Origin: Curtobacterium aurantiacum
Lineage (GTDB): Bacteria > Actinomycetota > Actinomycetes > Actinomycetales > Microbacteriaceae
Direction: 5' to 3'
DNA length: 64,000 bases
Assembly: GCF_018598555.1 (NCBI RefSeq)
Contig: NZ_JAHEWN010000010.1
Span: 1 to 64,000 of the forward strand
Positions 40,428-55,766 of the stretch are shown here, in pieces; positions within the stretch are counted from its first letter, which is position 1; each line of letters begins with the position of its first letter. Position numbers and translations under genes: made by a program. The notes under the pieces are model-generated. The model saw nothing but the letters and a program-made list of their open reading frames with translations. It was not told where the DNA came from and searched no databases.

Positions 40428-41411
40428 CTACCGCCCGGCCGCCTGAGCGGTCACCCGGAGCTGGTCCACCGCGCCGAGCACGTCGTCCGCGGTCACGGCC
40501 AGGATCGCCGGGTCCGGGTCCTCGGCGAACACGTCGCCGCGACGGACCGAGGCGTCGGTGAGCACGATGTGCGGGCCGGTCGCCGGCGGGCCCCACGCCT
40601 CGGGCGGTGCCGGGCCGAACAGCACGACCGAGGGCACCCCGTAGGCGGTCGCCAGGTGCGCAGCGCCGGTGTCGACGGTGACGACGAGCCGCGCGGCGGC
40701 GATCACCGCGGCGAACGCCTGCAGGTCCAGGGTGCCGGCCAGCACCGCCTCCGGCGCCAGGCCGGCCGCGTCGGCGACGGCACGGGCGCGCACGACGTCG
40801 TCCGCGCCTCCCGTCAGGACCACGTGGGCACCGCGCGCTCGGAGTCCGCGCACCACGTCGGCGAAGCGGTCCGTCGGCCAGTGCCGCGCCCCGTGGAAGG
40901 CCCCCACGTGCACGACGGCCGCGTCGGCGACGACGGGCGGTGCCGCGGGTCGGTCGATGTGCACCTCGGTCGCGTCCGCCTCGATCCCGTGCCAGGTGAG
41001 CAGGTCGGCCCAGCGGTCCCGTTCGTGCACGTCGTCCGGCCACTCCGGACCCGCGTAGTCGTGCGTCGGGTCGGCGTGGCCGATCACCCGGCGGGGTGCG
41101 AGCGCGGCGACGAGGTCGGAGGACTCCGGACCGGCGCCGTGCAGGTTGACGGCGACGTCGACCGCTCCGTGCGGTGCCGCGATCGGGTGGTCGAGGCCGT
41201 GCTGGGCCAGGTGCACGTCCACCGACGGCACGAGCTCCACGACCGGCGCCAGCCACGCCGTGGTGGCGAGCGTGATCCGGTGGTCGGGGAACGCGCGGCG
41301 CAGCGCGTGCAGTGCGGGGACGGCGACGAGCAGGTCGCCGAGCTTGATGGCTCGGAGGACGAGCAGTTCCGGGCGTCCGTCGGCGTCGGGCAGGTTCTCG
41401 AGGGCGGTCAC
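40428..41411 (-). CDS. Glycosyltransferase family 9 (heptosyltransferase-like)
   Basis: 327 residues, GT-B fold of the ADP-heptose:LPS heptosyltransferase family: LLVLRAIKLGDLLVAVPALH at the N-terminus, VVHVGAFHGARHWP at the start of the second domain and the sugar-nucleotide site VVTVDTGAAHLATAYGVPSV. Divergent from the gmhB-like gene 100 bases away, so it borders the heptose locus. GTG 41411 lies seven bases after TACCGT (41424 to 41419, minus strand), suggesting a leaderless start. Acceptor unknown. Confidence 0.88.
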   Translation of the reverse strand: MTALENLPDADGRPELLVLRAIKLGDLLVAVPALHALRRAFPDHRITLATTAWLAPVVELVPSVDVHLAQHGLDHPIAAPHGAVDVAVNLHGAGPESSDLVAALAPRRVIGHADPTHDYAGPEWPDDVHERDRWADLLTWHGIEADATEVHIDRPAAPPVVADAAVVHVGAFHGARHWPTDRFADVVRGLRARGAHVVLTGGADDVVRARAVADAAGLAPEAVLAGTLDLQAFAAVIAAARLVVTVDTGAAHLATAYGVPSVVLFGPAPPEAWGPPATGPHIVLTDASVRRGDVFAEDPDPAILAVTADDVLGAVDQLRVTAQAAGR

Positions 41412-41511
41412 CGCCGCGACGGTAGACCCGACACGCTGGTGGCCCTGTCGGGACCGCGCTCCGCGGCTCTTCCTGGGGCGGTGCCCGGCGGCCGACCGGT
41501 AGTCACGGAGC
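41412..41511. promoter_or_regulatory. Divergent promoter region of the heptose locus
   Basis: Minus strand TACCGT (41424 to 41419) serves the GT9 gene. On the plus strand TAGTCA (41500-41505) lies six bases before ATG 41512; its last base departs from the consensus, so this side is weaker. Confidence 0.45.
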
Positions 41512-42069
41512 ATGGCCCTCGCTCCGGACCGCGTCATCCGCGGCCTGCTCCTCGACCGCGACGACACCCTCGTGGTGGACGTCCCCTACAACGCCGACCC
41601 GCACCTGGTCGTCCCCGTCCCCGGCGCCCGCCGCGCCGTGGAGCGTGCGCGGGCCGCCGGGCTCCGGCTCGGCGTCGTGACGAACCAGTCGGTGATCGCG
41701 AAGGGCATGGCCACACGGGAGCAGGTCGACGCCACGAACGCCCGGGTCGACGAGCTCGTCGGCCCGTTCGACGTCTGGTGCGTCTGCCCGCACGACGCGG
41801 GCGACGCCTGCGCCTGCCGGAAGCCGCGGCCCGGGATGGTGCTCGACGCCGCCGAGCGGCTCGGCATCCCGCCGGAGTCGATCGTCGTCGTCGGCGACAT
41901 CGGGGCCGACGTGCAGGCCGCACGGAACGCCGGCGCCCAGGGCATCCTGGTGCCCACACCCCGCACGCGCACCGAGGAGGTCGACGCCGCGGAGACCGTC
42001 GCCGCCGACCTCGACGAGGCCGTCGCCCTCGTGCTCGAGCACGTCGGCAGCGCGGCGGACCGGGCGTGA
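41512..42069 (+). CDS. HAD-family heptose-bisphosphate phosphatase (GmhB-like)
   Basis: In the heptose pathway GmhB removes the 7-phosphate from heptose 1,7-bisphosphate. 185 residues: catalytic DRDDT (15-19), motif II TNQS (57-60), the GmhB zinc loop C-x-C-P-H...C-x-C-R-K-P (Cys/His at 92, 94, 100, 102) and VVGDIGAD (127-134). The zinc loop separates it from other HAD-IIIA enzymes such as HisB, although HisB-N is related. Its stop overlaps the next GT9 start as GTGA. Confidence 0.85.
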   Translation: MALAPDRVIRGLLLDRDDTLVVDVPYNADPHLVVPVPGARRAVERARAAGLRLGVVTNQSVIAKGMATREQVDATNARVDELVGPFDVWCVCPHDAGDACACRKPRPGMVLDAAERLGIPPESIVVVGDIGADVQAARNAGAQGILVPTPRTRTEEVDAAETVAADLDEAVALVLEHVGSAADRA

Positions 42070-43145
42070 GCGCCGGACGCCGCGTCCTCGTCGCCCGGCT
42101 CGACTCGTTCGGCGACGTCCTGGTCGCCGGACCCGCCGTGCGCGCGGTCGCCGCCGGCGCCGCGCACGTCACGATGCTGTGCGGGCCGCAGGGCGCGCCG
42201 GCTGCCGACCTGCTGCCCGGCATCGACCGGGTCCGGGTGTGGGCGGCGCCCTGGGTCACCGAGACCGCTCGCCCGATCGACGACGCCCTGCTCGCCGAGT
42301 TCCGTGCCCTGGTCGCCGAGGAGCGCCCCGACGAGGCCGTCGTCCTGACCTCCTTCCACCAGTCCCCCCTCCCCCTCGCGCTGCTCCTGCGCCTGGCCGG
42401 CGTCGCCCGCGTCTCCGGTGCCTCCGTCGACCACCCCGGGTCCCTGCTCGACGTGCGCCTGCGCCCCGGCGAGGACCTGCCGGAGGACCTCCCCGAGCCC
42501 GAGCGGGCGCTGCGGATCGCCGAGGCGGCCGGGTTCCGGCTGCCGCCGGACGACGACGGGAGGCTCGTGGTGCGCCACGACGCCGCCCTGCCCCCGTCCG
42601 TGGCCGCGCTCGACCGCTACGTGGTCGTGCACCCCGGAGCCAGCGTCCCGGCACGCTCGTGGCCGGAGTCGCACCACCGCGCGCTCGTCGCCGCCTACGC
42701 CGGACGCGGCGTCCCCGTCGTCGTCACGGGCTCCCCTGGCGAACGCACGCTCACCGCCGCCGTCGCCGGCGACACCGGCATCGACCTCGGCGGCCGGACC
42801 AGCCCCGCCGAGCTCGCCGCGGTGCTCGCCGGGGCCGAGGTCGTCGTGGTCGGCAACACCGGCCCGGCACACCTCGCCGCCGCCGTCGGGGCACCCGTCG
42901 TCAGCCTGTTCTCGCCCGTCGTCCCCGCCGTCAAGTGGGCGCCGTACGCCCCGCTCGTCGAACTGCTCGGCGACCAGTCCGCCCCGTGCCGTCTGAGCCG
43001 CGCCAGGGAGTGCCCCGTGCCCGGCCACCCGTGCCTGTCCGGAGTGCGCATCGAGGACGTCCTGGCCGCCCACGAACGGCTCCTCGACCGCGTTTCGCGG
43101 ATGGACCAGAGAAGTCTGCGGGGAGGCCCAGAAGGCGCTGCGTAG
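42066..43145 (+). CDS. Glycosyltransferase family 9 (heptosyltransferase-like)
   Basis: 359 residues, GT9 pattern: VLVARLDSFGDVLVAGPAVR at the start, VVVHPGASVPARSWP in the linker and EVVVVGNTGPAHLAAAVGAP for the sugar nucleotide. Cys-rich C-terminal segment (APCRLSRARECPVPGHPCLSG), as in many GT9 members. GTG 42066 is coupled to the gmhB-like stop. Only distantly similar to the GT9 at 40428, so probably a different linkage. Confidence 0.87.
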   Translation: MSAGRRVLVARLDSFGDVLVAGPAVRAVAAGAAHVTMLCGPQGAPAADLLPGIDRVRVWAAPWVTETARPIDDALLAEFRALVAEERPDEAVVLTSFHQSPLPLALLLRLAGVARVSGASVDHPGSLLDVRLRPGEDLPEDLPEPERALRIAEAAGFRLPPDDDGRLVVRHDAALPPSVAALDRYVVVHPGASVPARSWPESHHRALVAAYAGRGVPVVVTGSPGERTLTAAVAGDTGIDLGGRTSPAELAAVLAGAEVVVVGNTGPAHLAAAVGAPVVSLFSPVVPAVKWAPYAPLVELLGDQSAPCRLSRARECPVPGHPCLSGVRIEDVLAAHERLLDRVSRMDQRSLRGGPEGAA

Positions 43146-43232
43146 CGTGCGCCACTGCTTCTCCTGCTCCTTCTCCTGCTGCTCCGGCAGCGGCGGGGAG
43201 CGACCCCATCGACACCGACCGGAAGGCCCTGC

Positions 43233-44234
43233 ATGCGGATCCTCGTGTGGCACGTGCACGGCGGCTGGATGGACGCCTTCGTCCGCGGCCCGCACGAGTA
43301 CCTCATCCCGACCACCCCGGCGCGCGACGCCTGGGGACTCGGCCGCGGCGGGCGCGACTGGCCCGACCGAGCGATCGAGATCGACCCGGCGGACGTCGCC
43401 GAGGCCGAGGTCGACGTGGTCGTCCTGCAGCGCACCGAGGAGCTCGAGGAAGCCCGCAGACTGCTCGGCGGCCGAGACGTCCCGATCGTCTTCGTCGAGC
43501 ACAACGCACCCCGGGTCGACGTGCCGAACAGCCTGCACCCGATGCGCGACCGCGACGACCTGACGATCGCGCACGTGACGCACTGGAACGCCCTCATGTG
43601 GGACTGCGGCACCACCCGCACCACCGTCGTCGAACACGGCGTCGTCGACCCCGGCCCGCTGTACACGGGTGCGCTCGAGCGCCTCGGCGTCGTCATCAAC
43701 GAACCCGTCCGACGGAACCGCGTCGTCGGCACCGACCTGCTCCCCCGCTTCGCCGAGGTCGCCCCGGTCGACGTCTGGGGCATCGGCACCGAACGCCTGC
43801 CGGAGCTCGGGTTCGGCGACCGCGTCGTCGCCCAGGGTGACGTCAAGGCCGACCCGATGCACGCGGCGCTCGCCGAACGGCGGGCCTACGTGCACCCGAA
43901 CCGCTGGACCTCGCTCGGGCTGTCGCTCATCGAGTCGATGCACATGGCCATGCCGGTGCTCGTGCTCGCGACGACGGACGCGGCCCGCACGGTGCCCGGT
44001 GAGGCCGGCGCCATCGCGACCGACGTCGAGGACCTGGTCCGGGCCTCCAGGACCCTGATCGAGGACCCGGAGGAGGCGCGCCGACGGGGCCTCGTGGCAC
44101 GCGAAGCCGTGCTCGCACGGCACGCGCTCGGCCGGTTCCTCGCCGACTGGGACGACCTGCTCGACGACGCCGTCGCGCGCGGTGCGCGACGGAACCGTGC
44201 GGCGGGAGCCGCGCTCGAAGGGAGCCTGCGATGA
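43233..44234 (+). CDS. Glycosyltransferase, GT-B fold (family 4-like)
   Basis: 333 residues. The N-terminal half is unusual ([21 protein letters not shown]), the C-terminal half has [20 protein letters not shown], the E-x7-E-like region of GT4 retaining enzymes. ATG 43233 with GGAAGG upstream. Its stop overlaps the following GT4 start as ATGA. Confidence 0.8.
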
Positions 44235-45559
44235 AGATCGCCATGGTGTCCGAACACGCGAGCCCGCTCGCGGTGCTCGGCGGGGTCGACGCCGGTGGAC
44301 AGAACGTCCACGTCGCCGAACTGTCCGGTGCGTTGGCCGACCGCGGCCACCACGTGACCGTCTACACGCGGCGCGACGACGCGTCGCAGCCGGTGCGGGT
44401 GCCCCTGCGACCCGGTGTGGACGTCGTGCACGTCGACGCCGGTCCCGCACGCTCCGTGCCGAAGGACGAACTGTTCCCGTTCATGGGGACGTTCGCCTCG
44501 GTGCTCGCCGCCGAGTGGTTCCTCGACCGCCCCGACGTGGTGCACGCGCACTTCTGGATGTCCGGCCACGCCGCGCTCGACGCCGTGAGCCAGGTGCAGG
44601 CCCGGACCGGTGGCGTCCGGATCCCGGTCGTGCAGACCTTCCACGCCCTCGGCGTCGTGAAGCGCCGGCACCAGGGGGCCGCGGACACCAGCCCGGCCGA
44701 GCGCGAGTGGGTCGAACCCGCCGCCGGTCGGAGCGTCGACCAGGTCGTCGCCACGTGCTCCGACGAGGCGTTCGAGCTCAAGGCGCTGGGCGTCCCGCTG
44801 CACCGCATCTCCGTGGTGCCGTGCGGTGTCGACGTCTCGCTCTTCCGACCGGACGGCCCCGTCGAACAGCGCGACCGCCCGCTCCGGGTGCTCACCGCGT
44901 CGCGCCTCGTGCAGCGGAAGGGCGTCGGGACGACGATCGCGGCGCTCGCGGCCCTGGTCGGACAGGGCCGCGACGTCGAGCTCGTCGTGGTGGGCGGTGC
45001 TGGTGTCGCCGGTGCCGACCTGGTGGACGACCCCGAGTACCAGCGGCTCGACGCCCTGGCGCGGTCCCTCGGGGTGCGCGACCACGTGACCTTCCGCGGG
45101 CAGCTCGGCCAGCACGACATGCCGGCGGTCTACCGCAGCGCCGACGTCGTCGTCTGCGCCCCCTGGTACGAGCCGTTCGGCATCGTGCCGCTCGAGGCGA
45201 TGGCGTGCGGTCGACCGGTGGTCGCGTCGAGTGTCGGCGGGCTCATCGACACCGTCGTCGAGGACGCCACCGGCCTGCACGTGCCGCCGCGCGACGAGAC
45301 CGCGGTCGCCGATGCCGTCGGCGCCCTGCTCGACGACCCGGAGCGCCGCGAGGCGTACGGCCGGGCCGGGCGGAAGCGCGCCGAGTCCCGCTACACGTGG
45401 CAGAAGGTCGCCGCCGACAGCGAGCGCGTCTACGAGCGGCTGCTCGCCGGCGCGACGTCGTCCGCCAGCACGACCGGGCCCGCCGCCGGCCGCTCGCGCA
45501 CCACCCACGCCGGCCGGGTCGCCCGCGCCGCACAGTCGACGGAGAGGACCGCACGATGA
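44231..45559 (+). CDS. Glycosyltransferase family 4
   Basis: 442 residues, classic retaining GT4: [20 protein letters not shown] near the N-terminus (as in sucrose-phosphate synthase/MshA-type enzymes), [12 protein letters not shown], and [19 protein letters not shown] with the E-x7-E pair. A Ser/Thr/Ala/Arg-rich C-terminal tail of about 35 residues is extra. Stop overlaps the gmhA-like start as ATGA. Confidence 0.9.
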
Positions 45560-46179
45560 CCATCGACCAGCAGACCGGACTCGAGGAACGCGCCGTCACC
45601 GACAGTGCCCGCATCGTCGTCGACCACGTCGCGGCGTCGGTCCCCGTGATCGCATCCCTCGTCGACCACCGGGACCACATCGCCGCGTGGGCGGACGACA
45701 TCGCGGCGCGGCTCGTCGCGGGGCGCCGTCTGCTCGCCGCGGGCAACGGCGGATCGGCTGCTGAGGCCCAGCACCTGACGTCGGAGCTCACCGGGCGCTT
45801 CGAGGGCGACCGCCCCGCGTACTCGGCGATCGCGCTGCACGCGGAGACCTCGGCCGTGACCGCGATCGGGAACGACTACGGCTACGACCAGGTGTTCGCG
45901 CGCCAGGTCTCGGCACACGCCCGCGCCGGGGACGTCGTCGTGCTGCTGTCGACGAGCGGCAAGAGCCCGAACCTGCTCCGTGCAGCCGAGGCCGCGCGGG
46001 CCGTCGGTGCCCGTTCGCTCGCCTTGACCGGATCCGGCCCGAACCCGCTCGCCGACCTGGTCGACGACGCGATCTGCATCGAGGGGCCGTCCGCCAACGT
46101 GCAGGAGGCGCAGCTCGTCCTGGTGCACGCCCTGTGCAAGGCGATGGAGCCGACGCTGCGTCGCGGAGGGCGTCGATGA
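45556..46179 (+). CDS. SIS-domain sedoheptulose-7-phosphate isomerase (GmhA-like)
   Basis: Predicted first step of heptose synthesis: sedoheptulose 7-phosphate to glycero-manno-heptose 7-phosphate. 207 residues, with the GmhA signature [11 protein letters not shown] (63-73), the phosphate loop STSGKSPN (132-139), and the catalytic Glu70 and His191 positions (in [12 protein letters not shown]). It is closer to GmhA than to the related DiaA. Coupled on both sides (ATGA). Confidence 0.87.
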
Positions 46180-47630
46180 GCGGGGCCGCCGCGGGTCCGC
46201 GTCCCGGCGCCGCTACCGCTCCGCGTTCCGGTGCTGCCGCCGGCCGCGTCACTGCTCCGCGCTTCCGCATCGCCGTCGTCGGGGACACCCTGCTCGACGT
46301 CGACGTCTCCGGCACGAGCGAGCGCCTGAGCCCGGACGCACCCGTGCCCGTGGTCGACGTGGCCACCGACGACCGCCGTGCCGGCGGTGCTGGTCTCGTC
46401 GCGACGATGCTCTCCCGTGACGGTCACGACGTCACCCTGGTCACCGTCCTGAGCGACGACGGCCGTGCGCAGGAGATCCGCGACCTGCTCCCCGGCGTCA
46501 CGGTCGTCGCCGGGCCCTCGGGCGTGCCCACCCCCGTGAAGACCCGGGTGCGCGTCGTCGACCACGCCCTCGTCCGCATCGACGAGGGCTGCGCGACCCC
46601 ACCCGTGCCCGATGCCACCGAGGCGATGACCGCTGCTCTCGACGAGGTCGACGCGATCGTCGTCGCCGACTACGGCCGCGGGGTCGCCGCAGCCCCCGCC
46701 CTCCGCGACGCGATCGCGCGCGCTGCCGAGCGCCTGCCGGTCGTGTGGGACCCGCACCCCAAGGGCGCCGCCCCGGTGCCGGGCATCACCGTCGCCACCC
46801 CGAACGCGGCCGAGGCCCGGCGCTTCACCGACGTCGAGGGCCACGGTGTGCCCTTCGCCACCGTCGCCGCAGCGCAGCTCGTCGAGCAGTGGCAGGCCGG
46901 CGCGGTCGCCGTGACCATGGGTGACCGCGGAGCGCTCCTCGCCGACGCGCAGGGCGACAGCCGCTTCGTGCCGGCACCGTCCGTCAGCGCCGGGGACCCC
47001 TGCGGAGCCGGCGACCGGCTCGCAGCCGGAGTCGCCGTGGCGCTGGCCTCGGGGGCGGACGTCCCGGACGCCGTCTCCGCCGGGGTGGTCGCCGCGTCCG
47101 AGTACCTGGCCGCCGGTGGCGTCACCGCGCTCTTCGCCGACGACGGTCCCGCGCCGCTCGCCGTGCCCGGGGCCGACCGCGACGCCATGCGCCTGGTGCA
47201 CGACGTCCGGAGCGCCGGCGGCACCGTCGTCGCGACCGGAGGCTGCTTCGACCTGCTGCACGCCGGGCACGCCCGCACCCTGTCGGCCGCCCGTGCCCTC
47301 GGCGACTGCCTGGTCGTTTGCCTCAACTCGGACTCGTCCGTCCGCGGGCTCAAGGGCCCCGACCGGCCGATCATGACCCAGGACGACCGGGTCGAGCTGC
47401 TGCTCGCCCTGGACTGCGTCGACGCCGTCGTGGTGTTCGACGAGTCCACCCCCGACGAGGCCCTGCGCCGCTTCCGCCCGGACGTCTGGGCCAAGGGCGG
47501 CGACTACACCGCGAGCGAGCTGCCCGAGACGGCGACGCTCGCCGAGTGGGGTGGCCGCGTCGTCACCGTGCCGTTCCACCCGGGTCGGTCCACCACCCGG
47601 CTCGCCGCCGCGATCGCACGCGTCGGCTGA
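46176..47630 (+). CDS. HldE-like bifunctional heptose kinase/nucleotidyltransferase, copy 1
   Basis: 484 residues. A PfkB kinase (about 30-335: VVGDTLLDVDVSGTSERLSP, GAGD catalytic motif at 277-280) is fused to a nucleotidyltransferase (about 350-484: GGCFDLLHAGH with HAGH at 362-365, WAKGGDY near 438-444), the HldE layout. It would phosphorylate heptose 7-phosphate and later activate heptose 1-phosphate. ATG 46176 overlaps the gmhA-like stop (ATGA). The kinase half diverges more from HldE than copy 2 does (SGTSERLSPDAP instead of the EAxRVSxEAP form), so it may have another substrate or anomer. Confidence 0.83.
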   Translation: MSGAAAGPRPGAATAPRSGAAAGRVTAPRFRIAVVGDTLLDVDVSGTSERLSPDAPVPVVDVATDDRRAGGAGLVATMLSRDGHDVTLVTVLSDDGRAQEIRDLLPGVTVVAGPSGVPTPVKTRVRVVDHALVRIDEGCATPPVPDATEAMTAALDEVDAIVVADYGRGVAAAPALRDAIARAAERLPVVWDPHPKGAAPVPGITVATPNAAEARRFTDVEGHGVPFATVAAAQLVEQWQAGAVAVTMGDRGALLADAQGDSRFVPAPSVSAGDPCGAGDRLAAGVAVALASGADVPDAVSAGVVAASEYLAAGGVTALFADDGPAPLAVPGADRDAMRLVHDVRSAGGTVVATGGCFDLLHAGHARTLSAARALGDCLVVCLNSDSSVRGLKGPDRPIMTQDDRVELLLALDCVDAVVVFDESTPDEALRRFRPDVWAKGGDYTASELPETATLAEWGGRVVTVPFHPGRSTTRLAAAIARVG

Positions 47631-47692
47631 GCGTCCGCTCGCCTGCCCACACCTGCTCGACCACTTCCCGCACCACTACGCAAAGGACATCC

Positions 47693-48397
47693 ATGCCCGT
47701 CCCCACCACCCCCATCGGCCGCGTCCTCGTCACCGGCGGCGCCTCCGGACTCGGCGCAGCCGTCGTCGCTGCCGTCACCGAGGCCGGCGGTACCCCGATC
47801 GTCCTCGACCTGCGGATCGACGCCGTCCCCGAGGGCGTCGACGCCGTCGCCGTGGACGTCTCGGACACCGACGCCGTCGAGCAGGCTGTCCGTGACGCCG
47901 CCGAGCGTCACGGTGGCCTCGACGCCGTCGTCACCGCCGCGGGCATCGACACCCCCGCCCCCATCGACGCGATCTCCTCCGGCAAGTGGGAGCAGATCGT
48001 CGGCGTCAACCTGATCGGCACCGCCTCGACCGTGCGCGCCGCCCTGCCCGCCCTCGAGGCCACGCACGGCCGCGTCGTCACCATCTCCTCGTCGCTCGCC
48101 CTGCGCGGCGTCGGCGACGGCACCGCGTACTCCGCGTCGAAGTTCGGGGTCCGCGGGTTCTCGCAGGCGCTGGCCGCCGAGACCGCCGGTCGCATCGGGG
48201 TCACGAACATCATCCCCGCCGGCATGCGCACCAACTTCTTCGCGGACCGCACCGAGCAGTACAAGCCGGGCCCGGACGCCCAGCTGATCGAGCCGGAGTA
48301 CGTCGCGAACTCGATCATCTTCGCGCTCTCGCAGCCGTCCGGCTGCGAGATCCGCGAGCTGTCGATCATGCCGGCGACGGAGCCGAGCTGGCCGTAG
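47693..48397 (+). CDS. Classical SDR oxidoreductase
   Basis: 234 residues, TGGASGLG cofactor loop, catalytic Ser in ISSSLA and YSASK. It is a short classical SDR and not the extended HldD epimerase of the heptose pathway. The locus position suggests it modifies a sugar, but this is inference only. ATG 47693 has AAAGGA upstream; 62-base gap after copy 1 of hldE. Ends the first plus-strand arm of the locus. Confidence 0.85.
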   Translation: MPVPTTPIGRVLVTGGASGLGAAVVAAVTEAGGTPIVLDLRIDAVPEGVDAVAVDVSDTDAVEQAVRDAAERHGGLDAVVTAAGIDTPAPIDAISSGKWEQIVGVNLIGTASTVRAALPALEATHGRVVTISSSLALRGVGDGTAYSASKFGVRGFSQALAAETAGRIGVTNIIPAGMRTNFFADRTEQYKPGPDAQLIEPEYVANSIIFALSQPSGCEIRELSIMPATEPSWP

Positions 48398-48409
48398 CCG
48401 CTCGCCGCT

Positions 48410-48452
48410 GACGGACGGGAGGCGCGGTGCCGGCTGGCACCGCGCCTCCCGT
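48410..48452. terminator. Palindromic repeat copy E, bidirectional terminator
   Basis: A 17-bp stem (48415-48431 with 48436-48452, arms ACGGGAGGCGCGGTGCC and its complement) with a GGCT loop, between the convergent SDR and GT9 genes. It shares the GACGGACGGGAGGC start with 56448-56501. Confidence 0.75.
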
Positions 48453-48482
48453 GTGTGCGTGTGCCGTGCACGGTGCGCGGTG

Positions 48483-48597
48483 CGTCGCCTGGTGCAGCGT
48501 TGACGGCTGGGTGCGCGCTTCCAGCGCCGCACGCAGCGGGCAACCGCGCACGGGGTGACGGCGTGCGCACGAGACCGAAGCTCGCACGGTGCGAGGC
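48483..48597. repeat. Diverged copy of the block at 1-343
   Basis: GGTGCAGCGTTGACGGCTGG (48491-48510) and the following Ala/Arg-free DNA align with 251-330, then CGCACGGTGCG at 48583-48593. No gene in 48453-48600. Confidence 0.5.
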
Positions 48598-48600
48598 TCG

Positions 48601-49689
48601 TCAGGTCGTGCGGAGCAGGTCCTCGACGTCGGCGAGGACGGCCTCGGGCTCGACCTGGTCCACGTAGGAGGGGTCGTGCTCGCAGCGCTGGGCGGTCCAG
48701 CCGACCTGGGTGACGTCCGCACCGCAGACCGGGCACCGCGTCACGAAGGACAGGTGCACCCGGTGCCGGCCGCGGTCGAAGGGGCCGGCGTTGATGACGT
48801 TGCCGAACCAGAACACGCCCACGGTCGGGGTGCCGACGGCCACGGCGAGGTGCCGCGGGCCGGAGTCGTCGCCGACCATGACGTCGGCCGCGGCGAGGAC
48901 CTCGGGGAGTTCGCGGAGCGGCAGCGCCGCGGTCAGGTCGTGGACCCGGTCGCGCAGCGCCGTCGGCAGCGCCGCGACGATGGCGGATGATGCCGGGACG
49001 TCCGTCGCGTCCCCCACGAGCACGACGTCGTCGCCGGCCTCGAGCCGGGCACGGGCGACCTCGGCGAAGCGCGAGGGGCTCCAGCGTCGACGGGGGTCGG
49101 TGGCGCCGGGGTGGATCGCGACGAGTCGACCCTCGACACCGAGGCGCTGTCGGACCCCGGCCCGAGCGGCCTCGGACACGTGCAGTCGGGGGTCGAGGGT
49201 GACCGGTTCGGCGCCGGCGAGCGAGGCCACCTCGAGCGCCCGGACGACCTCGTGCTGGTAGTAGACGTAGCGGACCCAGCGCTCCAGGACCTCGGCGTCC
49301 TCGGTCGCGGTCCCGACGGTGTGGCGGGCGCCGAGCCGGAGCAGGAAGGGGTTGGAGTTCCGGCCGCCGCCGTGCACCTGCACCGCGAGGTCGAAGCGGC
49401 CGTGCAGCCGCTCGAAGAAGTCGTGTTCGCTCGGTGCACCGTCGCCCGACTCCCGAACGCCGGGCACGACGGGGAGCTCCTCGAAGGCGTGGACGGCATC
49501 GGTCCGGCCCTCGAGCACCGGGCGTGCCGACGGTGGGCCGAGCAGCGTGATCCGGGCGTCGGGGTACGCGGCGGCGAGGGCCTCGAACGCCGGGAGGGCG
49601 AACATCAGGTCGCCCAGTCCTCCGCCGCGGAGCACCGCGATCTCTCGGACATCGTCGAACCGTTCTCCGCCCACACCGATCTGTTGCAC
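48601..49689 (-). CDS. Glycosyltransferase family 9 (heptosyltransferase-like)
   Basis: Third GT9 of the locus, about 362 residues: IAVLRGGGLGDLMFALPAFE, LVAIHPGATDPRRRW and VMVGDDSGPRHLAVAVGTPT. A four-Cys-type C-terminal segment (CPVCGADVTQVGW...RCEHD) could bind a metal. GTG 49689 is chosen from a TAGACG box seven bases upstream; GTG 49674 is an alternative. Opposite strand to the rest, flanked by a terminator and the ALDH operon. Confidence 0.85.
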   Translation of the reverse strand: MQQIGVGGERFDDVREIAVLRGGGLGDLMFALPAFEALAAAYPDARITLLGPPSARPVLEGRTDAVHAFEELPVVPGVRESGDGAPSEHDFFERLHGRFDLAVQVHGGGRNSNPFLLRLGARHTVGTATEDAEVLERWVRYVYYQHEVVRALEVASLAGAEPVTLDPRLHVSEAARAGVRQRLGVEGRLVAIHPGATDPRRRWSPSRFAEVARARLEAGDDVVLVGDATDVPASSAIVAALPTALRDRVHDLTAALPLRELPEVLAAADVMVGDDSGPRHLAVAVGTPTVGVFWFGNVINAGPFDRGRHRVHLSFVTRCPVCGADVTQVGWTAQRCEHDPSYVDQVEPEAVLADVEDLLRTT

Positions 49690-49823
49690 AGCTCCACGTC
49701 TACCGGTCGTACCCGGTCGGACGCCCAGCAGCGGCCCCGGATGGACGAGAAGCGCGATGCCGTGATCGCACACAGCGAAGGTCGAGCACCGTGTGAGGCC
49801 CCGCCCGCCTCCGGAAGGACCCC

Positions 49824-51353
49824 ATGACGATCGCACCCCCCGCCGCCGACGACCTCGTGGTGACCGACCCGGTCAACGGATCGATCGCGTCGACCGTGCA
49901 GCGCTCGACCGAGGACGACGTGCGCAACGCCGTCGCCCGTGCTCGTGCCGCTGCCGGAGCCTGGGCCCGGACGGCACCCGCCGAGCGCGGCGCCCTGCTG
50001 CACGCCGCGGCCGAGCACCTCCGTGCACACGCGCAGGAGCTGGCGGACCTGAACACCCGCGAGACCGGCAAGGTGCCCGGCGACGCGCTCGGTGGGGTCG
50101 AAGCCGGCATCGGGACGCTCGTGCAATACGCCGAGCTCGGCCCGGTGCACCGCGGTGAGGCGCTCCGTGGGCAGTTCGGTGCCGCCGACTGGTCGGTGCC
50201 GCACCCCCGCGGCGTGGTGCTCGCCCTGACGCCGTGGAACGACCCGGTCGCCGTGGCCTGCGGGATCCTCGGTGCCGCGATCGTCACCGGCAACACCGTC
50301 GTGCACAAGGGCAGCGAGCGGTGCCCCGCGACGTTCGCCCGACTGAACGCCCTGCTCGCCGAGGTCCTGCCCGACGGCGTCCTGATCGGCGTCGACGGCG
50401 ACGCGACCACGGGCGAGCAGCTCCTGGCCCAGGAGGGCATCGACGTCTACGCCCACGTCGGCTCCACCGCGACCGGTGACCGGCTGAGCGAGGTGGCCGC
50501 GACCACCCGTGCCCACGTCATCCGCGAGAACGGCGGCAACGACCCCGTCATCGTCGACGCCGACGTCGACCCCGAGTGGGCCGCCGCACAGGTCGCCCTC
50601 GGTGCCTTCGCCAACACCGGCCAGATCTGCACCAGCGTGGAGCGGGTCTACGTGCACCAGGACGTCGCCGAGTCCTTCGTCGCCGCGCTCGTCGCCGAGG
50701 CGGAGCGCCGCACCGCAGCACCCGCCGCCGAGTTCGGCCCGCTGGTCGACGACCGTCTGCGCGACCTCGTGCAGGCCCACGTCGACGACGCGATCGCCCG
50801 CGGTGCCTCCGCCCGGACCGGCGGCGTCACGCCGGGCGGTCTCGGGTCGTTCTACCCCGCCACCGTCCTGACCGGCTGCACCGACGACATGCTCGTGCTG
50901 ACCGAGGAGACCTTCGGCCCCGTCGCCCCGGTCCGCGTCGTGTCGGACTTCGAGGAGGGCCTCCGGCTCGCCGCTGCCGACCGCTACGGCCTCGCCGCCA
51001 CCGTGTTGACGAACGACACCGCACACGCCCTGCGTGCGGCGGCCGAGCTGCCCGTCGGCACCGTCAAGGTGAACGCGGTGTTCGGCGGTGCCCCGGGTGG
51101 CAGCGCCCAGCCCCGCGGTGCCTCGGGCGCCGGCTTCGGGTACGGCCCGCACCTGCTCGACGAGATGACGACGACGACCGTGGTGCACCTCGAGGCAGCC
51201 CCGCCGCGCCGCACCGCCGAGCCGTCGACCGCAGCAGCCAGCAGCACCGCAGCAGCCAGCAGCACCGCGGCAGCCAGCAGCCCCGCCACCAGCCCCGCTG
51301 CCGCTGCCGGTGCCGCCGCTGGCAGCGCCGACACCGTGGGAGGCACCCGATGA
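49824..51353 (+). CDS. Aldehyde dehydrogenase
   Basis: NAD(P)-dependent oxidation of an aldehyde; substrate unknown. 509 residues: PWNDPVAVACGILGAA, catalytic E235 in RENGGND and nucleophile C269 in NTGQICTS, so active. Related to benzaldehyde/succinate-semialdehyde types. Residues 455-509 are an Ala/Ser tail with three AAASST-type repeats. GGAAGGA precedes ATG 49824. Its stop overlaps the second hldE-like start (ATGA); it is the first gene of the second arm of the heptose locus. Confidence 0.9.
   Translation: MTIAPPAADDLVVTDPVNGSIASTVQRSTEDDVRNAVARARAAAGAWARTAPAERGALLHAAAEHLRAHAQELADLNTRETGKVPGDALGGVEAGIGTLVQYAELGPVHRGEALRGQFGAADWSVPHPRGVVLALTPWNDPVAVACGILGAAIVTGNTVVHKGSERCPATFARLNALLAEVLPDGVLIGVDGDATTGEQLLAQEGIDVYAHVGSTATGDRLSEVAATTRAHVIRENGGNDPVIVDADVDPEWAAAQVALGAFANTGQICTSVERVYVHQDVAESFVAALVAEAERRTAAPAAEFGPLVDDRLRDLVQAHVDDAIARGASARTGGVTPGGLGSFYPATVLTGCTDDMLVLTEETFGPVAPVRVVSDFEEGLRLAAADRYGLAATVLTNDTAHALRAAAELPVGTVKVNAVFGGAPGGSAQPRGASGAGFGYGPHLLDEMTTTTVVHLEAAPPRRTAEPSTAAASSTAAASSTAAASSPATSPAAAAGAAAGSADTVGGTR
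51231..51284. repeat. 18-base triple tandem repeat in the ALDH tail
   Basis: Units at 51231-51248, 51249-51266 and 51267-51284 (GCAGCAGCCAGCAGCACC, the third diverged) encode Ala-Ala-Ala-Ser-Ser-Thr. In-frame, so copy number could vary without shifting the frame. Confidence 0.8.
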
Positions 51354-52843
51354 CCGCCGACGTCCGACTGGTCCGCGACCTCGTCGCGACCGTCGACGAC
51401 CGCGAGCCGCTCGTCGTCGTCATCGGCGACTGCATCCTCGACCGCTGGACGGTCGGCGAGGCCGAGCGGGTCTCCCGCGAGGCCCCGGCCCCCGTCGTCC
51501 GCGTCACCGAGACGATCGCGGTGCCCGGCGGCGCCGCCAACACCGCCGTGAACGCCCGTGCTCTCGGCGCCCGGGTCCGCATGGTCGGGCTCATCGGCGA
51601 CGACGAGGCCGGCGACGTGCTGCGCCAGCGACTCGAGGCAGCCGGCGTCGACACGTCGTTCCTGGTCGAGATCCCCGGCGCCCGCACCACCACGAAGTCC
51701 CGTGTGGTCGGCGGTGACCGCGTCGTCGTCCGGGTCGACGAGCTCGCCGCGACCCCGACCGCCGAGCACGGCGAACGCCTCGCCCGCTCGGTCGCCCGCG
51801 CCGTCCGGTGCGCCGACGCCGCCGTCGTGTGCGACTACGGCCTGGGTGTCCGCGCCGAGGACGTCGTGCCCATGCTCGACCGTGACCGCCCCGGCGCCGT
51901 CGTGGTCGACGCCCACGACCTGACCCGCTGGGCAGCACTGCACCCCGACCTCGTCACGCCGAACGCCGGTGAGACCGCCGCGCTGCTCGGCACGGAACTC
52001 GGCACCGGTTCGGACCGTGTCACCACCGTCGTCGCTGCCCGTGCCGAGGTGCTCGCCCGCAGCGGTGCCCGCGCCGCGGTGGTCACGCTCGACCGCGACG
52101 GCACGGTGCTGCTCGAGCCCGGTTCCGACCAGGGCTACCGCACACGTGCGACGCCCGCCTCGGAGCAGCAGGCCTCCGGTGCCGGTGACACCTTCTGCGC
52201 CGCGGCGACCGTCGCCCTCGCCGTGCAGGCGCCCCTGCGCGACGCCGTCTCGGTCGCCCAGGCGGCCGCCGACGTCGTCGTCCGCGAGGCCGGCACCTCG
52301 GTCTGCACCGCCGCTGCCCTGCTCGGCTCGGTCACCGCACCGGCCGCCACCGTGGTCGACCACGACGAACTCGCCACCGCGGTCGAGGCGGCACGGCAGG
52401 CCGGTCGTCGCGTGGTCTTCACGAACGGCTGCTTCGACGTCGTGCACCGCGGCCACACCACGTACCTGCGGCAGGCCCGCGACCTCGGTGACCTGCTCGT
52501 CGTCGCCCTGAACGACGACGACTCGGTGCGCCGGTTGAAGGGTCCGGAACGGCCGATCAACCCCGCCGAGGACCGCGCCGGCGTGCTCGCGGCGCTCGCC
52601 TGTGTCGACCTGGTCACGGTGTTCGCCACGGACACCCCGATCCCGCTCATCGAACGGCTGCGGCCCGAGGTCTACGTCAAGGGCGGCGACTACTCCCCCG
52701 AGATGCTGACCGAGACCGAGGTCGTCCGCGGCTACGGCGGCGAGGTCGTCATGGTCGACTACGTGCCCGAGCACTCCACGAGCGCCGTCGTCCGCCGCAT
52801 CCGCGAGGCCGCCGCCCGCACCGAACCGGACCCGGCACCGTGA
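51350..52843 (+). CDS. hldE: HldE-like bifunctional heptose kinase/nucleotidyltransferase, copy 2
   Basis: 497 residues, the closer match to HldE: VIGDCILDRWTVGEAERVS and EAPAPVVRVTETIAVPGGAA in the kinase domain, GAGD at 277-280, then the nucleotidyltransferase with TNGCFDVVHRGH (HRGH 366-369), RRLKGPERPINP and EVYVKGGDYSPE. It probably makes heptose 1,7-bisphosphate and NDP-heptose. ATGA overlap with ALDH upstream, GTGA with the GT2 downstream. Symbol by homology only. Confidence 0.85.
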   Translation: MTADVRLVRDLVATVDDREPLVVVIGDCILDRWTVGEAERVSREAPAPVVRVTETIAVPGGAANTAVNARALGARVRMVGLIGDDEAGDVLRQRLEAAGVDTSFLVEIPGARTTTKSRVVGGDRVVVRVDELAATPTAEHGERLARSVARAVRCADAAVVCDYGLGVRAEDVVPMLDRDRPGAVVVDAHDLTRWAALHPDLVTPNAGETAALLGTELGTGSDRVTTVVAARAEVLARSGARAAVVTLDRDGTVLLEPGSDQGYRTRATPASEQQASGAGDTFCAAATVALAVQAPLRDAVSVAQAAADVVVREAGTSVCTAAALLGSVTAPAATVVDHDELATAVEAARQAGRRVVFTNGCFDVVHRGHTTYLRQARDLGDLLVVALNDDDSVRRLKGPERPINPAEDRAGVLAALACVDLVTVFATDTPIPLIERLRPEVYVKGGDYSPEMLTETEVVRGYGGEVVMVDYVPEHSTSAVVRRIREAAARTEPDPAP

Positions 52844-53724
52844 CCGCCCGCTGGTCCGGGTCCTGGGCGAAGGCCCCCGATCCAGCGGACACGAGCACGG
52901 TCGACGTCGACGTGCTCATCCCCACCGTCGGCAGGCCGGCCGAGCTCGCCACGACGCTCGCCGGCCTCGCCGCCCAGACCGACGTCGACCTGCGCGTCGT
53001 GCTGAGCGACCAGTCGGCGGACGGAGACGCCGCCAGCGCGCCGGCGGTCGCCGCCATGCTCCGCGTCCTGGAGGCCCAGGGCCGGCCCGTCGTGCTCCTC
53101 ACGCACCGGGAACGGCGTGGCCTGGCAGAGCACCGGCAGTTCCTGCTCGACCACGCCGAGGCAGCCGCGGTGCTGTTCCTCGACGACGACGTCTGGCTCG
53201 AGCCGGGGTCGATCGCGCGGATGCTCGACGCGCTGCGCACCCTGGGCTGCGGGTTCGTCGGCAGCGCGGTGCAGGGGTTGTCGTACCTGCAGGACCGCCG
53301 CCCCCACGAGACCTCGGTGTTCGAGCGGTGGGACGGCCCCGTCGTGCCCGAGGTGGTGCGCCGCGGCACCCCCGGCTTCGACCGCTGGTCGCTGCACAAC
53401 GCCGCGAACCCGACGCACGTCGCCGCCGACCTCGACCTGCGCCCCGGCGAGTGGGTGCCCTACCGCGTCGCGTGGGTCGGTGCCTGCGCGCTGTACGACC
53501 GTCGTGCGCTCGAGGAGGTCGGGGGCTTCCGGTTCTGGGACACCCTGCCGCCCGAGCACGCCGGTGAGGACGTCGTCGCGCAGTGGCGGGTGATGGAACG
53601 ATTCGGCGGTGCGGGCATCATGCCCTCGGGTGCCGTGCACCTGGAGGCCCCGACCACCGTCGTCGACCGCCGTGTGGACGCACCCGACGTGGTGTTCGCG
53701 GACGGGAACGTCATACCGCGGTAG
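52840..53724 (+). CDS. Glycosyltransferase family 2
   Basis: 294 residues, GT-A fold: VDVLIPTVGRPAELATTLAG at the N-terminus, VLFLDDDVWLEPG with the DDD metal motif, and a late PPEHAGEDVVAQWRV with the catalytic ED. No membrane helix, so it acts at the inner face of the membrane. Last gene of the ALDH-hldE-GT2 unit. Confidence 0.88.
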   Translation: MTARWSGSWAKAPDPADTSTVDVDVLIPTVGRPAELATTLAGLAAQTDVDLRVVLSDQSADGDAASAPAVAAMLRVLEAQGRPVVLLTHRERRGLAEHRQFLLDHAEAAAVLFLDDDVWLEPGSIARMLDALRTLGCGFVGSAVQGLSYLQDRRPHETSVFERWDGPVVPEVVRRGTPGFDRWSLHNAANPTHVAADLDLRPGEWVPYRVAWVGACALYDRRALEEVGGFRFWDTLPPEHAGEDVVAQWRVMERFGGAGIMPSGAVHLEAPTTVVDRRVDAPDVVFADGNVIPR

Positions 53725-53817
53725 GGGGTGGTCGAGACCACCGCGGGATGGCCAGCGCGCGCCGGCTCCGTAGCGTCGTCCTCGTCGACGAGTTCCGTCG
53801 GCGGGAGGGAGCACCCC

Positions 53818-54522
53818 GTGTTCGACCAGATCACCCCGCTCGTCGTCGAGCTGGCCGCGAGTCCGCTCGTCTACGTCGTCCTCTTCGCCCTGTGCCTGGT
53901 GGACGGCTTCTTCCCGCCGGTGCCGAGCGAGTCCGCCCTCGTCGCGATCGCCGCCATCGCCGCGACGTCCGGACAACCCGTCCTCGCCGTGGTGCTCGTC
54001 GCCGCCGCCCTCGGAGCGATCGCCGGCGACTCGATCGCGTACTGGATCGGGCGCCGGATCGGGTTCGCCCGGCTGGCCCGGTCGAAGCGACCACGGATCG
54101 CGGCGGCCTTCGCGTTCGCGGAGCGGCAGATGCAGCGCCGCTCCGCCAGCCTCATCCTGACCGGGCGCTTCATCCCGGTCGGCCGGGTCGCGGTCAACAT
54201 GACCGCCGGCGCGACCGGCCTGCCCTACCGCCGGTTCCTCGCGATCAGTGCGATCGCGGGGCTGGCGTGGTCGGCGGTGTCGATCGGCATCGCCCTGGCC
54301 GCGTCGAGCGTGCTGCACGAACCGATCGTCGCGGCCCTGGTGTCGATGGTGGTCGCCGCCGGGCTCGGGATCGCGGTCGACCGGGTGCTCGGTACCATCA
54401 GCCGCAGGCGCGAAGCCCGCGAGGCCCGCGCTGCTGCCGCTGCCGCTGCCGCTGCCACACCCGCCCCCGCCACCGCCCCCGAACCCTGCCTCGTCCGAAC
54501 CGGAGAGACCGCCCGCCCGTGA
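53818..54522 (+). CDS. DedA-family membrane protein
   Basis: 234 residues with four to five hydrophobic spans, FFPPVPSESALVAIAAIAA and GRFIPVGRVAVNMTAGATG, the DedA/VTT signatures. DedA proteins recycle undecaprenyl phosphate or maintain membrane homeostasis. The C-terminus is an Ala-rich run. GTG 53818 has GGGAGGGAG upstream; TAGCGT at 53771-53776 is a possible -10 box. Its stop overlaps the histidine-kinase start (GTGA), so all three genes form an operon. Confidence 0.88.
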   Translation: MFDQITPLVVELAASPLVYVVLFALCLVDGFFPPVPSESALVAIAAIAATSGQPVLAVVLVAAALGAIAGDSIAYWIGRRIGFARLARSKRPRIAAAFAFAERQMQRRSASLILTGRFIPVGRVAVNMTAGATGLPYRRFLAISAIAGLAWSAVSIGIALAASSVLHEPIVAALVSMVVAAGLGIAVDRVLGTISRRREAREARAAAAAAAAATPAPATAPEPCLVRTGETARP

Positions 54523-55766
54523 CCGTCGTCCCGAAGCCCCGACCCACCTGGGTCCGGCCTGCCGTGCAGATCGGCTTCGTCGTCGTCGTGGTGTCCCTGT
54601 TCGCCGTCGCCGCACCCGTCACCGCCGTGTTCTACGGTGTCCCCGTGCCGCTCGCGATGCTCGCGACCGCCGTGCTGTCGGCGAGCATCGGGCTCGCACC
54701 GCTCGTCCCCCGCACGGCGTCGGTCGCGCACCTCGTCGCCCTCGCCGGCCTCGGGGTCCTGACGGCACCCGGCACCGTCGGGCCCTGGCCGGTCTCGGTC
54801 ACGAGCATCATCGGCCTGAGCGTGCTGCTCGTCGTGCTGGGCGTCCGCACCACCTGGCGGCTCACCGCGGTGGTCTGGGTCGCGGCGACGCTGCTCACCC
54901 TGCTGCTCATCGGCGTGACCCCCGACCGGTGGGGGCAGGTCGACGTCTGGGCGACGAGCTTCGTGGTGAGCGCCGGCGACACCCTCGTCGTGGCCACCGC
55001 GGCGGTCGTGATCGGGCAGCGCCGGAGCGTGCGCGAGGAGCTCGCCGCCGCCCGCCGCGACACCGAGCTCGAGCAGGCCCGACGCCGGACGGTCGAGGAG
55101 CGCTCCCGGATCGCCCGTGAGCTCCACGACGTCGTCGCCCACAGCATGTCCGTCGTGCACATGCAGGCCGAGTCCGCCCCGTACCGCGTCTCGGACCTGC
55201 CGCCGGAGGCCCGCACCGAGTTCGCCGCGATCGCCGAGACCTCGCGCACGGCCCTGCGGGAGATGCGGCAGCTGCTCGGCACCCTGCGTGGTGACGCCGA
55301 CGCCGAGCGCGCACCGCAGCCGCGGCTCGCCGACCTGCACGCGCTCGTGCAGGCCACCCGCGCGGCCGGGATCCCCGTCGAGCTCCGGCTCGACGAGGGG
55401 CTCGACCCAGACCTCGACGACGTCGACCGGCTGGCACAGCTCACCGTGTACCGGGTCGTGCAGGAAGCGCTCGGCAACGTGGCCCGGCACGCGCCCGGTG
55501 CGACCACCGTCGTGACGGTCGGGAGGCACGGCTCGGCCCTCACAGTCGAGGTCGCGAACACAGCGCCACCGGTCGGCAGCGTGCCCGGTGCGCCGCCGGA
55601 CGACGGCGGCTTCGGCCTGGCGGGGATGCGCGAGCGCGTCGCCGCGCTCCGCGGCACGATCGACCACGGGCCGGACCCGGACGGCGGCTTCCGCGTCGCC
55701 GTGCGCCTGCCCACCCGGCCCGCCGCGACCACGTCGCAGCCGACGGCCGACGGGGCAAGCCGATGA
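54519..55766 (+). CDS. Sensor histidine kinase (NarL/DesK type)
   Basis: 415 residues: four to six membrane helices in the first 165, HisKA_3 dimerization with H203 in ARELHDVVAHSM, and a HATPase domain with VQEALGNVARHA and GGFGLAGMRERV. No extracytoplasmic sensor domain, so it senses in or at the membrane, as expected beside DedA. GTGA and ATGA overlaps on both sides. Confidence 0.93.
   Translation: MTVVPKPRPTWVRPAVQIGFVVVVVSLFAVAAPVTAVFYGVPVPLAMLATAVLSASIGLAPLVPRTASVAHLVALAGLGVLTAPGTVGPWPVSVTSIIGLSVLLVVLGVRTTWRLTAVVWVAATLLTLLLIGVTPDRWGQVDVWATSFVVSAGDTLVVATAAVVIGQRRSVREELAAARRDTELEQARRRTVEERSRIARELHDVVAHSMSVVHMQAESAPYRVSDLPPEARTEFAAIAETSRTALREMRQLLGTLRGDADAERAPQPRLADLHALVQATRAAGIPVELRLDEGLDPDLDDVDRLAQLTVYRVVQEALGNVARHAPGATTVVTVGRHGSALTVEVANTAPPVGSVPGAPPDDGGFGLAGMRERVAALRGTIDHGPDPDGGFRVAVRLPTRPAATTSQPTADGASR

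What the first reader, a model, noticed from the sequence alone, without database searches (positions are those of the whole stretch)
40428..53724. Complete nucleotide-heptose pathway and GT9 enzymes in a Gram-positive
GmhA-, GmhB- and HldE-like proteins sit with three GT9 transferases, two GT4-like and one GT2. This is the enzyme set that makes ADP-heptose for LPS cores, but a Microbacteriaceae cell has no LPS. The product is probably a heptose-containing wall glycan, glycolipid or glycoprotein. ADP-heptose is also a known trigger of ALPK1 in animals, and plant recognition is an open question. Motifs seen: GmhA signature at 45744-45776, GmhB zinc loop near 41780-41820, HldE kinase and transferase motifs twice.
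Basis: partly seen in the sequence, partly recalled or inferred. Interest (0 to 1): 0.85.

Follow-up and report, generated by a model that had tools for sequence, protein, structure and literature searches.

The report
Heptose-glycan gene cluster in Curtobacterium
A plant-associated Gram-positive bacterium carries a gene cluster that very probably makes an unusual seven-carbon sugar, best known from Gram-negative cell surfaces, and builds it into an unidentified surface glycan; related clusters occur in other actinobacteria, so the chemistry can be tested directly.

Summary
Window 40428-53724 encodes a GmhA, a GmhB-like phosphatase, two HldE-like enzymes, three GT9, two GT4 and one GT2 transferases, plus an SDR and an aldehyde dehydrogenase. 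Catalytic motifs are kept except one change in the HldE1 kinase domain. The genus is Curtobacterium. In 398 sampled genomes of its family, HldE and GT9 occur in exactly the same 68, GmhA in all 68 and 20 more; none of the 68 has HldD over its cut-off. No LpxC was found in the genome. [quoted passage not shown] The cluster is not peculiar to this strain: 73 of 75 named loci of at least 12 kb (picked by similarity) share a seven-gene core, whose order matches the published Streptomyces coelicolor cwg operon ('cell wall glycan', product unresolved). The window holds an expanded variant with a second, distinct HldE, a third GT9, and probably a DedA protein and a two-component system in the same operon. 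Best reading: a cwg-related envelope glycan containing D,D-heptose. Sugar, acceptor and location are inferred. NDP-heptose enzymes in actinobacteria were already known; the two-HldE variant and its distribution are what this analysis adds.

The parts
40428..41411 (-). GT9a, heptosyltransferase-like; start uncertain (41411 or 41567)
   Evidence: PF01075 87.3 bits over cut-off; catalytic Asp, R-H-W-P and DTGxxH motifs; divergent upstream of GmhB in 53 of 73 core loci, co-directional after the SDR in 12 of 73
41512..42069 (+). GmhB-like HAD phosphatase
   Evidence: NF006506 109.7 bits, below cut-off; DxD, Lys and Cys/His zinc ligands aligned with E. coli GmhB
42066..43145 (+). GT9b, heptosyltransferase-like (NTG where WaaC has DTG)
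   Evidence: PF01075 81.7 bits; matches WaaC/WaaF chains
43233..44234 (+). GT4a, glycosyltransferase; marker used for the genome-contig scan
44231..45559 (+). GT4b, MshA / sucrose-phosphate-synthase-like glycosyltransferase
   Evidence: a stronger MshA-model match lies elsewhere in the genome (307 v 231.8 bits, neither over the cut-off of 462.5)
45556..46179 (+). GmhA, sedoheptulose 7-phosphate isomerase
   Evidence: TIGR00441 147.7 bits, below cut-off; S55, H61, E65, R69, D94, S119-T120-S121, S124, Q172, E173, H180 (E. coli numbers) kept
46176..47630 (+). HldE1, heptose-7-P kinase / heptose-1-P nucleotidyltransferase; GGAGLVA at 46383-46403; FHPGRSTT (STTR5-type) at 47574-47597
   Evidence: AlphaFold2 model pLDDT 85.7, best PDB matches HldA
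47693..48397 (+). classical SDR oxidoreductase, core member
   Evidence: PF00106 133.7 bits; in SDRs from named loci YxA[AS]K in 74 of 74, TGG[AS]SGLG in 47 of 74
48601..49725 (-). GT9c, heptosyltransferase-like with a C-terminal Cys/His cluster (48676-48735); 5' end approximate (frame opens with GTG at 49836)
   Evidence: PF01075 90.2 bits; model pLDDT 89.7; WaaF Z 33.5, rmsd 2.5 over 312 residues; C331, C334, C348, H350 invariant in 18 aligned, pattern in 50 of 50
49824..51353 (+). aldehyde dehydrogenase, substrate unknown
   Evidence: PF00171 362.8 bits; directly before HldE2 in 40 of 73 core loci
51350..52843 (+). HldE2, second kinase / nucleotidyltransferase; GGAANTA at 51527-51547; YVPEHSTS at 52760-52783
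   Evidence: group separate from HldE1, 100/100
52840..53724 (+). GT2 glycosyltransferase
   Evidence: weak MftF/EpsD-like matches; found next after HldE2 in 19 of 73 core loci
53728..54522 (+). DedA / UptA-like membrane protein, probable operon member
   Evidence: NF052604 41.9 bits, below cut-off of 250; 3-bp gap after GT2; also in L083, L085, L087, L090
54519..55766 (+). sensor histidine kinase, probable operon member
   Evidence: frame overlaps the DedA stop
55763..56425 (+). NarL-type response regulator, probable operon member
   Evidence: start overlaps the kinase stop (coordinates)

Best explanation
This is an expanded, cwg-related heptose-glycan cluster. GmhA isomerises sedoheptulose 7-phosphate to D-glycero-D-manno-heptose 7-phosphate; an HldE kinase domain makes the 1,7-bisphosphate; the GmhB-like HAD removes the 7-phosphate; [quoted passage not shown] HldE1 perhaps also CDP/UDP). 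No HldD follows, so the D,D form is kept. GT9a, GT9b and GT9c transfer heptose, and the two GT4 and the GT2 enzymes add other sugars, on the cytosolic face onto an unidentified, probably lipid-linked acceptor that becomes part of the cell envelope. Shown: genes, motifs, folds of HldE1 and GT9c as models, synteny, co-occurrence, lack of HldD and LpxC matches. Inferred: activities, anomer, nucleotide, acceptor, export and envelope location.
For: Families and motifs. HldE and GT9 in the same 68 of 398 family genomes, none with only one; GmhA in all 68 plus 20 others. HldD over cut-off in 0 of 68; no LpxC match. Seven-gene core in one order in 73 of 75 named loci of at least 12 kb. Overlapping stop/start codons at GmhB-GT9b, GT4a-GT4b-GmhA-HldE1 and ALDH-HldE2-GT2. 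HldE1 model matches HldA best; GT9c model matches WaaF best.
Against: No heptose has been measured. No conserved flippase, polymerase or ligase was seen next to the core in a rough ORF survey, so lipid linkage and export are guesses. HldE1 kinase domains have GGA[AG][LM] where the canonical motif has Asn, in 76 of 76 named copies, which may alter the substrate. GmhA is over its NCBIfam cut-off in 0 of 398 genomes, and several window proteins are below theirs. GT9 motifs vary between loci (for example DTGxxH in 58 of 66 GT9a, [RK]xWP in 54 of 79 GT9b). S. coelicolor's own sequence was not compared; the cwg match rests on published gene order and names. The window lacks cwgA-C-type genes beside GmhB. 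The 80 named loci are the best by similarity to the window, so breadth and order counts are biased.
Confidence: 0.7

Rival explanations
1. Protein heptosylation: a GT9, most likely GT9c, modifies proteins in the cytosol, as TibC/Aah do, and the surface product is a glycoprotein.
For: GT9c matches TibC-family model TIGR04414 weakly (19.5 bits, E 4e-4) and the TibC fold at Z 21.3, rmsd 3.6 over 280 residues; it has an invariant Cys/His cluster, and TibC is called iron-containing in its PDB title.
Against: WaaF (Z 33.5), 3tov (33.0) and WaaC (27.9), and even plant NDH subunits of this fold (24.7), score above TibC; a GT9c profile did not reach TibC by sequence at E up to 10; five further transferases point to a longer glycan.
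Confidence: 0.12
2. A heptose-containing small molecule, such as a septacidin-like natural product, exported by the neighbouring MFS protein.
For: The same route feeds septacidins (PMC10948575, passage); an MFS gene lies at 35898-37259.
Against: No nucleoside, PKS or NRPS family showed among the window proteins scanned; the window's MFS gene matched 10 of 80 named loci, nine Curtobacterium and L090, while the core is kept in one order far more widely.
Confidence: 0.08
3. The enzymes make another phosphosugar or nucleotide sugar, not D,D-manno-heptose; HldE1's changed kinase site, the SDR and the ALDH would set or modify substrate or product.
For: GGA[AG][LM] in 76 of 76 HldE1 against GGA[AG]N in 52 of 53 HldE2; SDR in the core; scores below curated cut-offs.
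Against: GmhA and GmhB sites intact; HldE1 fold matches HldA best; HldE2 keeps the canonical motif; GT9 and HldE co-occur exactly.
Confidence: 0.1

Closest known systems
cwg operon of Streptomyces coelicolor (SCO6179-SCO6190, 'cell wall glycan', sigma-E target)
   Same: Gene order GmhB-like, GT9, GT4, GT4, GmhA, HldE, by published names and two related loci
   Different: The window has an SDR in the core, a second HldE, a third GT9, an ALDH, a GT2 after HldE2, GT9a inverted on the other side, and no cwgA-C-type epimerase/carbamoyltransferase beside GmhB; sigma-E control not tested
ADP-heptose (NDP-heptose) biosynthetic enzymes GmhA/HldE/GmhB
   Same: All three enzyme types, catalytic residues kept
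   Different: No HldD over cut-off; two HldE; HldE1 has STTR5-type Arg and a changed kinase motif
LPS-core heptosyltransferases WaaC/WaaF (GT9)
   Same: Fold (GT9c model) and catalytic Asp
   Different: No LpxC match in the genome; 22, 24 and 18% identity to WaaC in A6; below NCBIfam heptosyltransferase cut-offs
Septacidin biosynthesis (Streptomyces fimbriatus)
   Same: Uses ADP-heptose (cited in PMC10948575 and PMC11461863)
   Different: No natural-product scaffold families among the window proteins scanned
Rhodococcus ruber gmhD (GDP-heptose)
   Same: Heptose enzyme needed for an actinobacterial capsule (PMC12298843, passage)
   Different: GDP route with another nucleotidyltransferase; gene set not compared

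Membership tests
NDP-heptose biosynthetic pathway (GmhA, HldE, GmhB) | GmhA active-site residues | tested here: met
   Ser55, His61, Glu65, Arg69, Asp94, Ser/Thr119-121, Ser124, Gln172, Glu173, His180 of E. coli invariant; roles recalled
NDP-heptose biosynthetic pathway (GmhA, HldE, GmhB) | HAD nucleophile/acid and zinc loop in GmhB | tested here: met
   D11, D13, C92, H94, C107, C109, K111, D136 of E. coli aligned; roles recalled
NDP-heptose biosynthetic pathway (GmhA, HldE, GmhB) | HldE kinase and nucleotidyltransferase catalytic motifs | tested here: met
   GAGD and GxFDxxHxGH in both; HldE1 GGAAN motif changed
NDP-heptose biosynthetic pathway (GmhA, HldE, GmhB) | NCBIfam curated cut-offs | tested here: inconclusive
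   HldE2 transferase domain passes; GmhA, GmhB, HldE1 transferase domain and both kinase domains do not
NDP-heptose biosynthetic pathway (GmhA, HldE, GmhB) | Enzyme activity | not testable with these tools
   needs biochemistry
LPS core (L,D-heptose) pathway | HldD epimerase | tested here: not met
   0 of 68 genomes over cut-off, two positive controls
LPS core (L,D-heptose) pathway | Lipid A synthesis (LpxC) | tested here: not met
   no match in the genome; control positive in 4 of 14
GT9 | PF01075 over gathering score | tested here: met
   three of three
cwg operon | Core order GmhB-GT9-GT4-GT4-GmhA-HldE | tested here: met
   compared with L045, L141 and published names, not with S. coelicolor DNA
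cwg operon | cwgA-C-type genes before GmhB | tested here: not met
   no such genes beside GmhB in the window; hence 'cwg-related core', not a cwg operon
cwg operon | sigma-E / vancomycin induction | not tested
   needs expression data
TibC/Aah protein heptosyltransferases | TIGR04414 over cut-off | tested here: not met
   GT9c 19.5 v 200 bits

The most novel reading that the evidence does not exclude
A class of Gram-positive envelope glycans containing D-glycero-D-manno-heptose exists across Actinomycetota, and cwg is its Streptomyces version. Curtobacterium, Arthrobacter and their relatives run two dedicated, long-separate heptose-activating enzymes (HldE1, predicted to use several NTPs, and HldE2), feeding separate GT9 enzymes, so that one envelope polymer is built from two activated-heptose pools.
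Probability: 0.3. Interest if true: 0.75.

Novelty: new variant of a known kind. Interest (0 to 1): 0.5.

Why it matters
A 2008 survey of known bacterial glycans says that L-glycero-D-manno-heptose is confined to Gram-negative bacteria (PMC2543016, passages); the form predicted here is D-glycero. If these clusters make what they appear to, a heptose glycan is an unread part of many actinobacterial envelopes, the product of the vancomycin-induced cwg operon gets a chemical identity to test, and a possible source of NDP-heptose, a trigger of ALPK1 in vertebrates (PMC11461863), exists in Gram-positive plant and soil bacteria.

Tried and rejected
Rejected: recent duplication of hldE (HldE1 and HldE2 form separate 100/100 groups; the E. 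coli branch is long, so the root is unsure). Disfavoured: GT4b as the genome's MshA (a better match lies on C4, though neither passes the cut-off). No sign of an anti-phage system (no PADLOC match at 1e-10 for six proteins). Not resolved: a conserved promoter between GT9a and GmhB (the alignment was cut unevenly and shows nothing usable). Not resolved: export genes (rough ORF calling, 416 leftover ORFs; only ten cluster representatives scanned). TibC was not reached by a GT9c profile.

Pattern counts to read with care: the first GmhA pattern for QE...H was badly written (0 of 77); a looser one gave 76 of 77; the long GmhA pattern ending in GR fits 63 of 77, the shorter one 77 of 77. The GT9c pattern [DT][DN]SG..H (11 of 50) was also badly written; DSGPRH columns are invariant in 18 aligned. 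One of the 76 HldE1 also contains a GGA[AG]N string. GAGD is in 75 of 76 HldE1 and 53 of 53 HldE2, GxFDxxHxGH in 71 of 76 and 51 of 53. My notebook calls the core in L050 full; on rechecking, L050 has no SDR between HldE1 and GT9a. Fisher values ignore relatedness.

Literature: Curtobacterium + heptose gave 0 papers; heptose + cell wall + Arthrobacter gave 6, none on its glycans by title; gmhA/hldE/Streptomyces/cell wall/glycosyltransferase (4 of 5 terms) gave 10, none on actinobacterial heptose glycans by title. As a separate word, 'heptose' occurs 0 times in the cwg papers PMC6767563, PMC5839063, PMC5882110 and PMC13011467, though 'phosphoheptose isomerase' and 'putative heptosyl transferase' do occur, so the link to heptose was already implied by annotation. 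Hong 2002 and Tang 2018, 2022 and 2024 were seen only as citations or through commentaries.
Full report
What is there. The region holds two runs of tightly packed genes. Run 1 (+): GmhB 41512-42069, GT9b 42066-43145, GT4a 43233-44234, GT4b 44231-45559, GmhA 45556-46179, HldE1 46176-47630, SDR 47693-48397. Run 2 (+): ALDH 49824-51353, HldE2 51350-52843, GT2 52840-53724, and then DedA 53728-54522, a histidine kinase 54519-55766 and a response regulator 55763-56425. GT9a (40428-41411) and GT9c (48601-49725, 5' end approximate) lie on the minus strand. Neighbouring frames overlap by 4 bases at 8 of the 11 joints within these runs, as in translationally coupled operons (coordinates).

Are the enzymes intact? 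GmhA and GmhB keep the active-site and zinc residues of the E. coli enzymes (residue roles recalled). Both HldE proteins keep GAGD and GxFDxxHxGH. HldE1 differs at one place in the kinase domain: GGA[AG][LM] in 76 of 76 named HldE1, against GGA[AG]N in 52 of 53 named HldE2. The HldE1 AlphaFold2 model (pLDDT 85.7, pTM 0.64) finds Burkholderia HldA as its seven best PDB chains. The GT9c model (pLDDT 89.7) fits WaaF with Z 33.5, rmsd 2.5 over 312 residues, and WaaC with Z 27.9. GT9c also has an invariant C-terminal Cys-Cys-Cys-His group (18 of 18 aligned; pattern in 50 of 50). All three GT9 keep the catalytic Asp; the Lys of WaaC's KHWP reads Arg in all three, and GT9b has NTG for DTG (roles recalled).

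Nucleotide. Commentaries on Tang et al. 2024 (PMC11461863, part 1 of 2 of the text; PMC11573728, passages) say that Arg at position 5 of (F/L)xxGxSTT lets these enzymes use CTP and UTP too. HldE1 has Arg there (FHPGRSTT), as do 72 of 76 named HldE1 (one His, three without the motif). HldE2 has His (YVPEHSTS); the 53 named HldE2 have His 24, Arg 15, Gln 4, Leu 2, and 8 without the motif. So ADP-heptose is likely but not the only possibility.

Whose is it? All 10 same-genus genomes listed, the window's own included, have two HldE.

Distribution. HldE (TIGR02199, E 1e-25) is in 52 of 396 genomes of the phylum and 68 of 398 of the family, 26 of 85 genera. GT9 (PF01075, E 1e-8) is in exactly the same 68 of 398. 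GmhA (TIGR00441, E 1e-25) is in 88: all 68 plus 20 without HldE; none of the 88 passes NCBIfam's own cut-off. HldD is over its cut-off in 0 of 68, with 2 positive controls; in the window's genome its best match has 94.8 bits against a cut-off of 274.6. LpxC has no match.

Synteny. Of the 80 named loci, 75 are at least 12 kb; 73 of these hold the core GmhB-GT9b-GT4a-GT4b-GmhA-HldE1-SDR in this order on one strand. The two others are L133 (Amycolatopsis, only GT4a-GT4b found) and L141 (Streptomyces, no SDR found; GmhB would lie beyond the contig end). GT9a is divergent upstream in 53 of 73, co-directional after the SDR in 12 of 73 (Micromonospora 9; Plantactinospora, Rugosimonospora, Phytohabitans 1 each), neither in 8. 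HldE2 is in 53 of 73, and all 12 genes in the window's order in 15 of 73: Curtobacterium 6, Arthrobacter 5, Amnibacterium, Goodfellowiella, Brevibacterium and an unnamed Microbacteriaceae 1 each. These loci were chosen by similarity to the window, so the counts favour conservation.

Of the 11 places fetched from ten genomes, five hold the full core: G008 (L039/L040, with the window's whole arrangement of GT9a, GT9c, ALDH and HldE2, GT2 not found), L042, L043, L044 and L049. L045 ends before the SDR; L046 has GT4a-GT4b some kilobases away from the rest; L048 lacks GT4a; L050 has no SDR between HldE1 and GT9a. L041 and L047 hold HldE2 with GT2 (L041 also GT9c). The tree puts HldE1 and HldE2 on two sides of a 100/100 branch.

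Closest known system. The S. coelicolor cwg operon, SCO6179-6190, is described as putative cell-wall-glycan genes, induced by vancomycin and partly dependent on sigma-E (PMC6767563, passages). Its published names (PMC5839063 and PMC5882110, passages) run: cwgD dehydratase, cwgE putative heptosyl transferase, cwgG transferase, cwgH phosphoheptose isomerase, cwgI bifunctional enzyme, cwgJ transferase. L141 and L045 show the same order with the window's homologues; L045 has, before GmhB, an epimerase, a carbamoyltransferase and a GT2, where cwgA-C would be. I did not compare S. coelicolor DNA itself.

Function. Exact co-occurrence of GT9 with HldE, without HldD or LpxC, makes heptose transfer outside LPS the simplest reading. 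Several transferases of three families suggest an oligosaccharide or polymer. An envelope role is inferred from cwg, from the DedA/UptA-like gene and two-component system coupled to run 2 (DedA also found in L083, L085, L087 and L090; the fetched flank is short in other loci), and from a sigma factor gene near the core: a cluster of similar ORFs in 17 of 80 named loci, of which one representative was scanned and has sigma-70 regions 2, 3 and 4. No conserved flippase, polymerase or ligase was seen, so acceptor and export stay open. An actinobacterial precedent for a heptose enzyme in a surface polysaccharide is gmhD of Rhodococcus ruber (PMC12298843, passage), by the GDP route.

Verdict. The interest lies in a direct test of what cwg-type clusters make.

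Noticed in passing
window 53728-56425: A DedA/UptA-like gene, a histidine kinase and a NarL-type regulator follow GT2 with overlaps or a 3-bp gap, so the HldE2 operon may include its own regulator.
   Followed up: partly
L121 4807-5862 (scanned), L098 6447-7202 and 15 other named loci: Similar ORFs near the core in 17 of 80 named loci; the one scanned is a sigma factor with regions 2, 3 and 4.
   Followed up: partly
   Followed up: no
window 48676-48735: GT9c ends in an invariant CxxC...CxH group, perhaps a metal site.
   Followed up: partly
L126 and L135 (Brevibacterium): HldE2 is strongly diverged here (39 and 38% to the window, long branch).
   Followed up: no
20 genomes, such as G558 and G728: GmhA-like isomerases at E 1e-25 occur without HldE or GT9 matches; another role is likely.
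   Followed up: no
L144 (Pseudonocardia MAG): The core is rearranged: GT4a-GT4b-GmhA-GmhB-GT9b-SDR, with no HldE found in the 11.6-kb locus.
   Followed up: no
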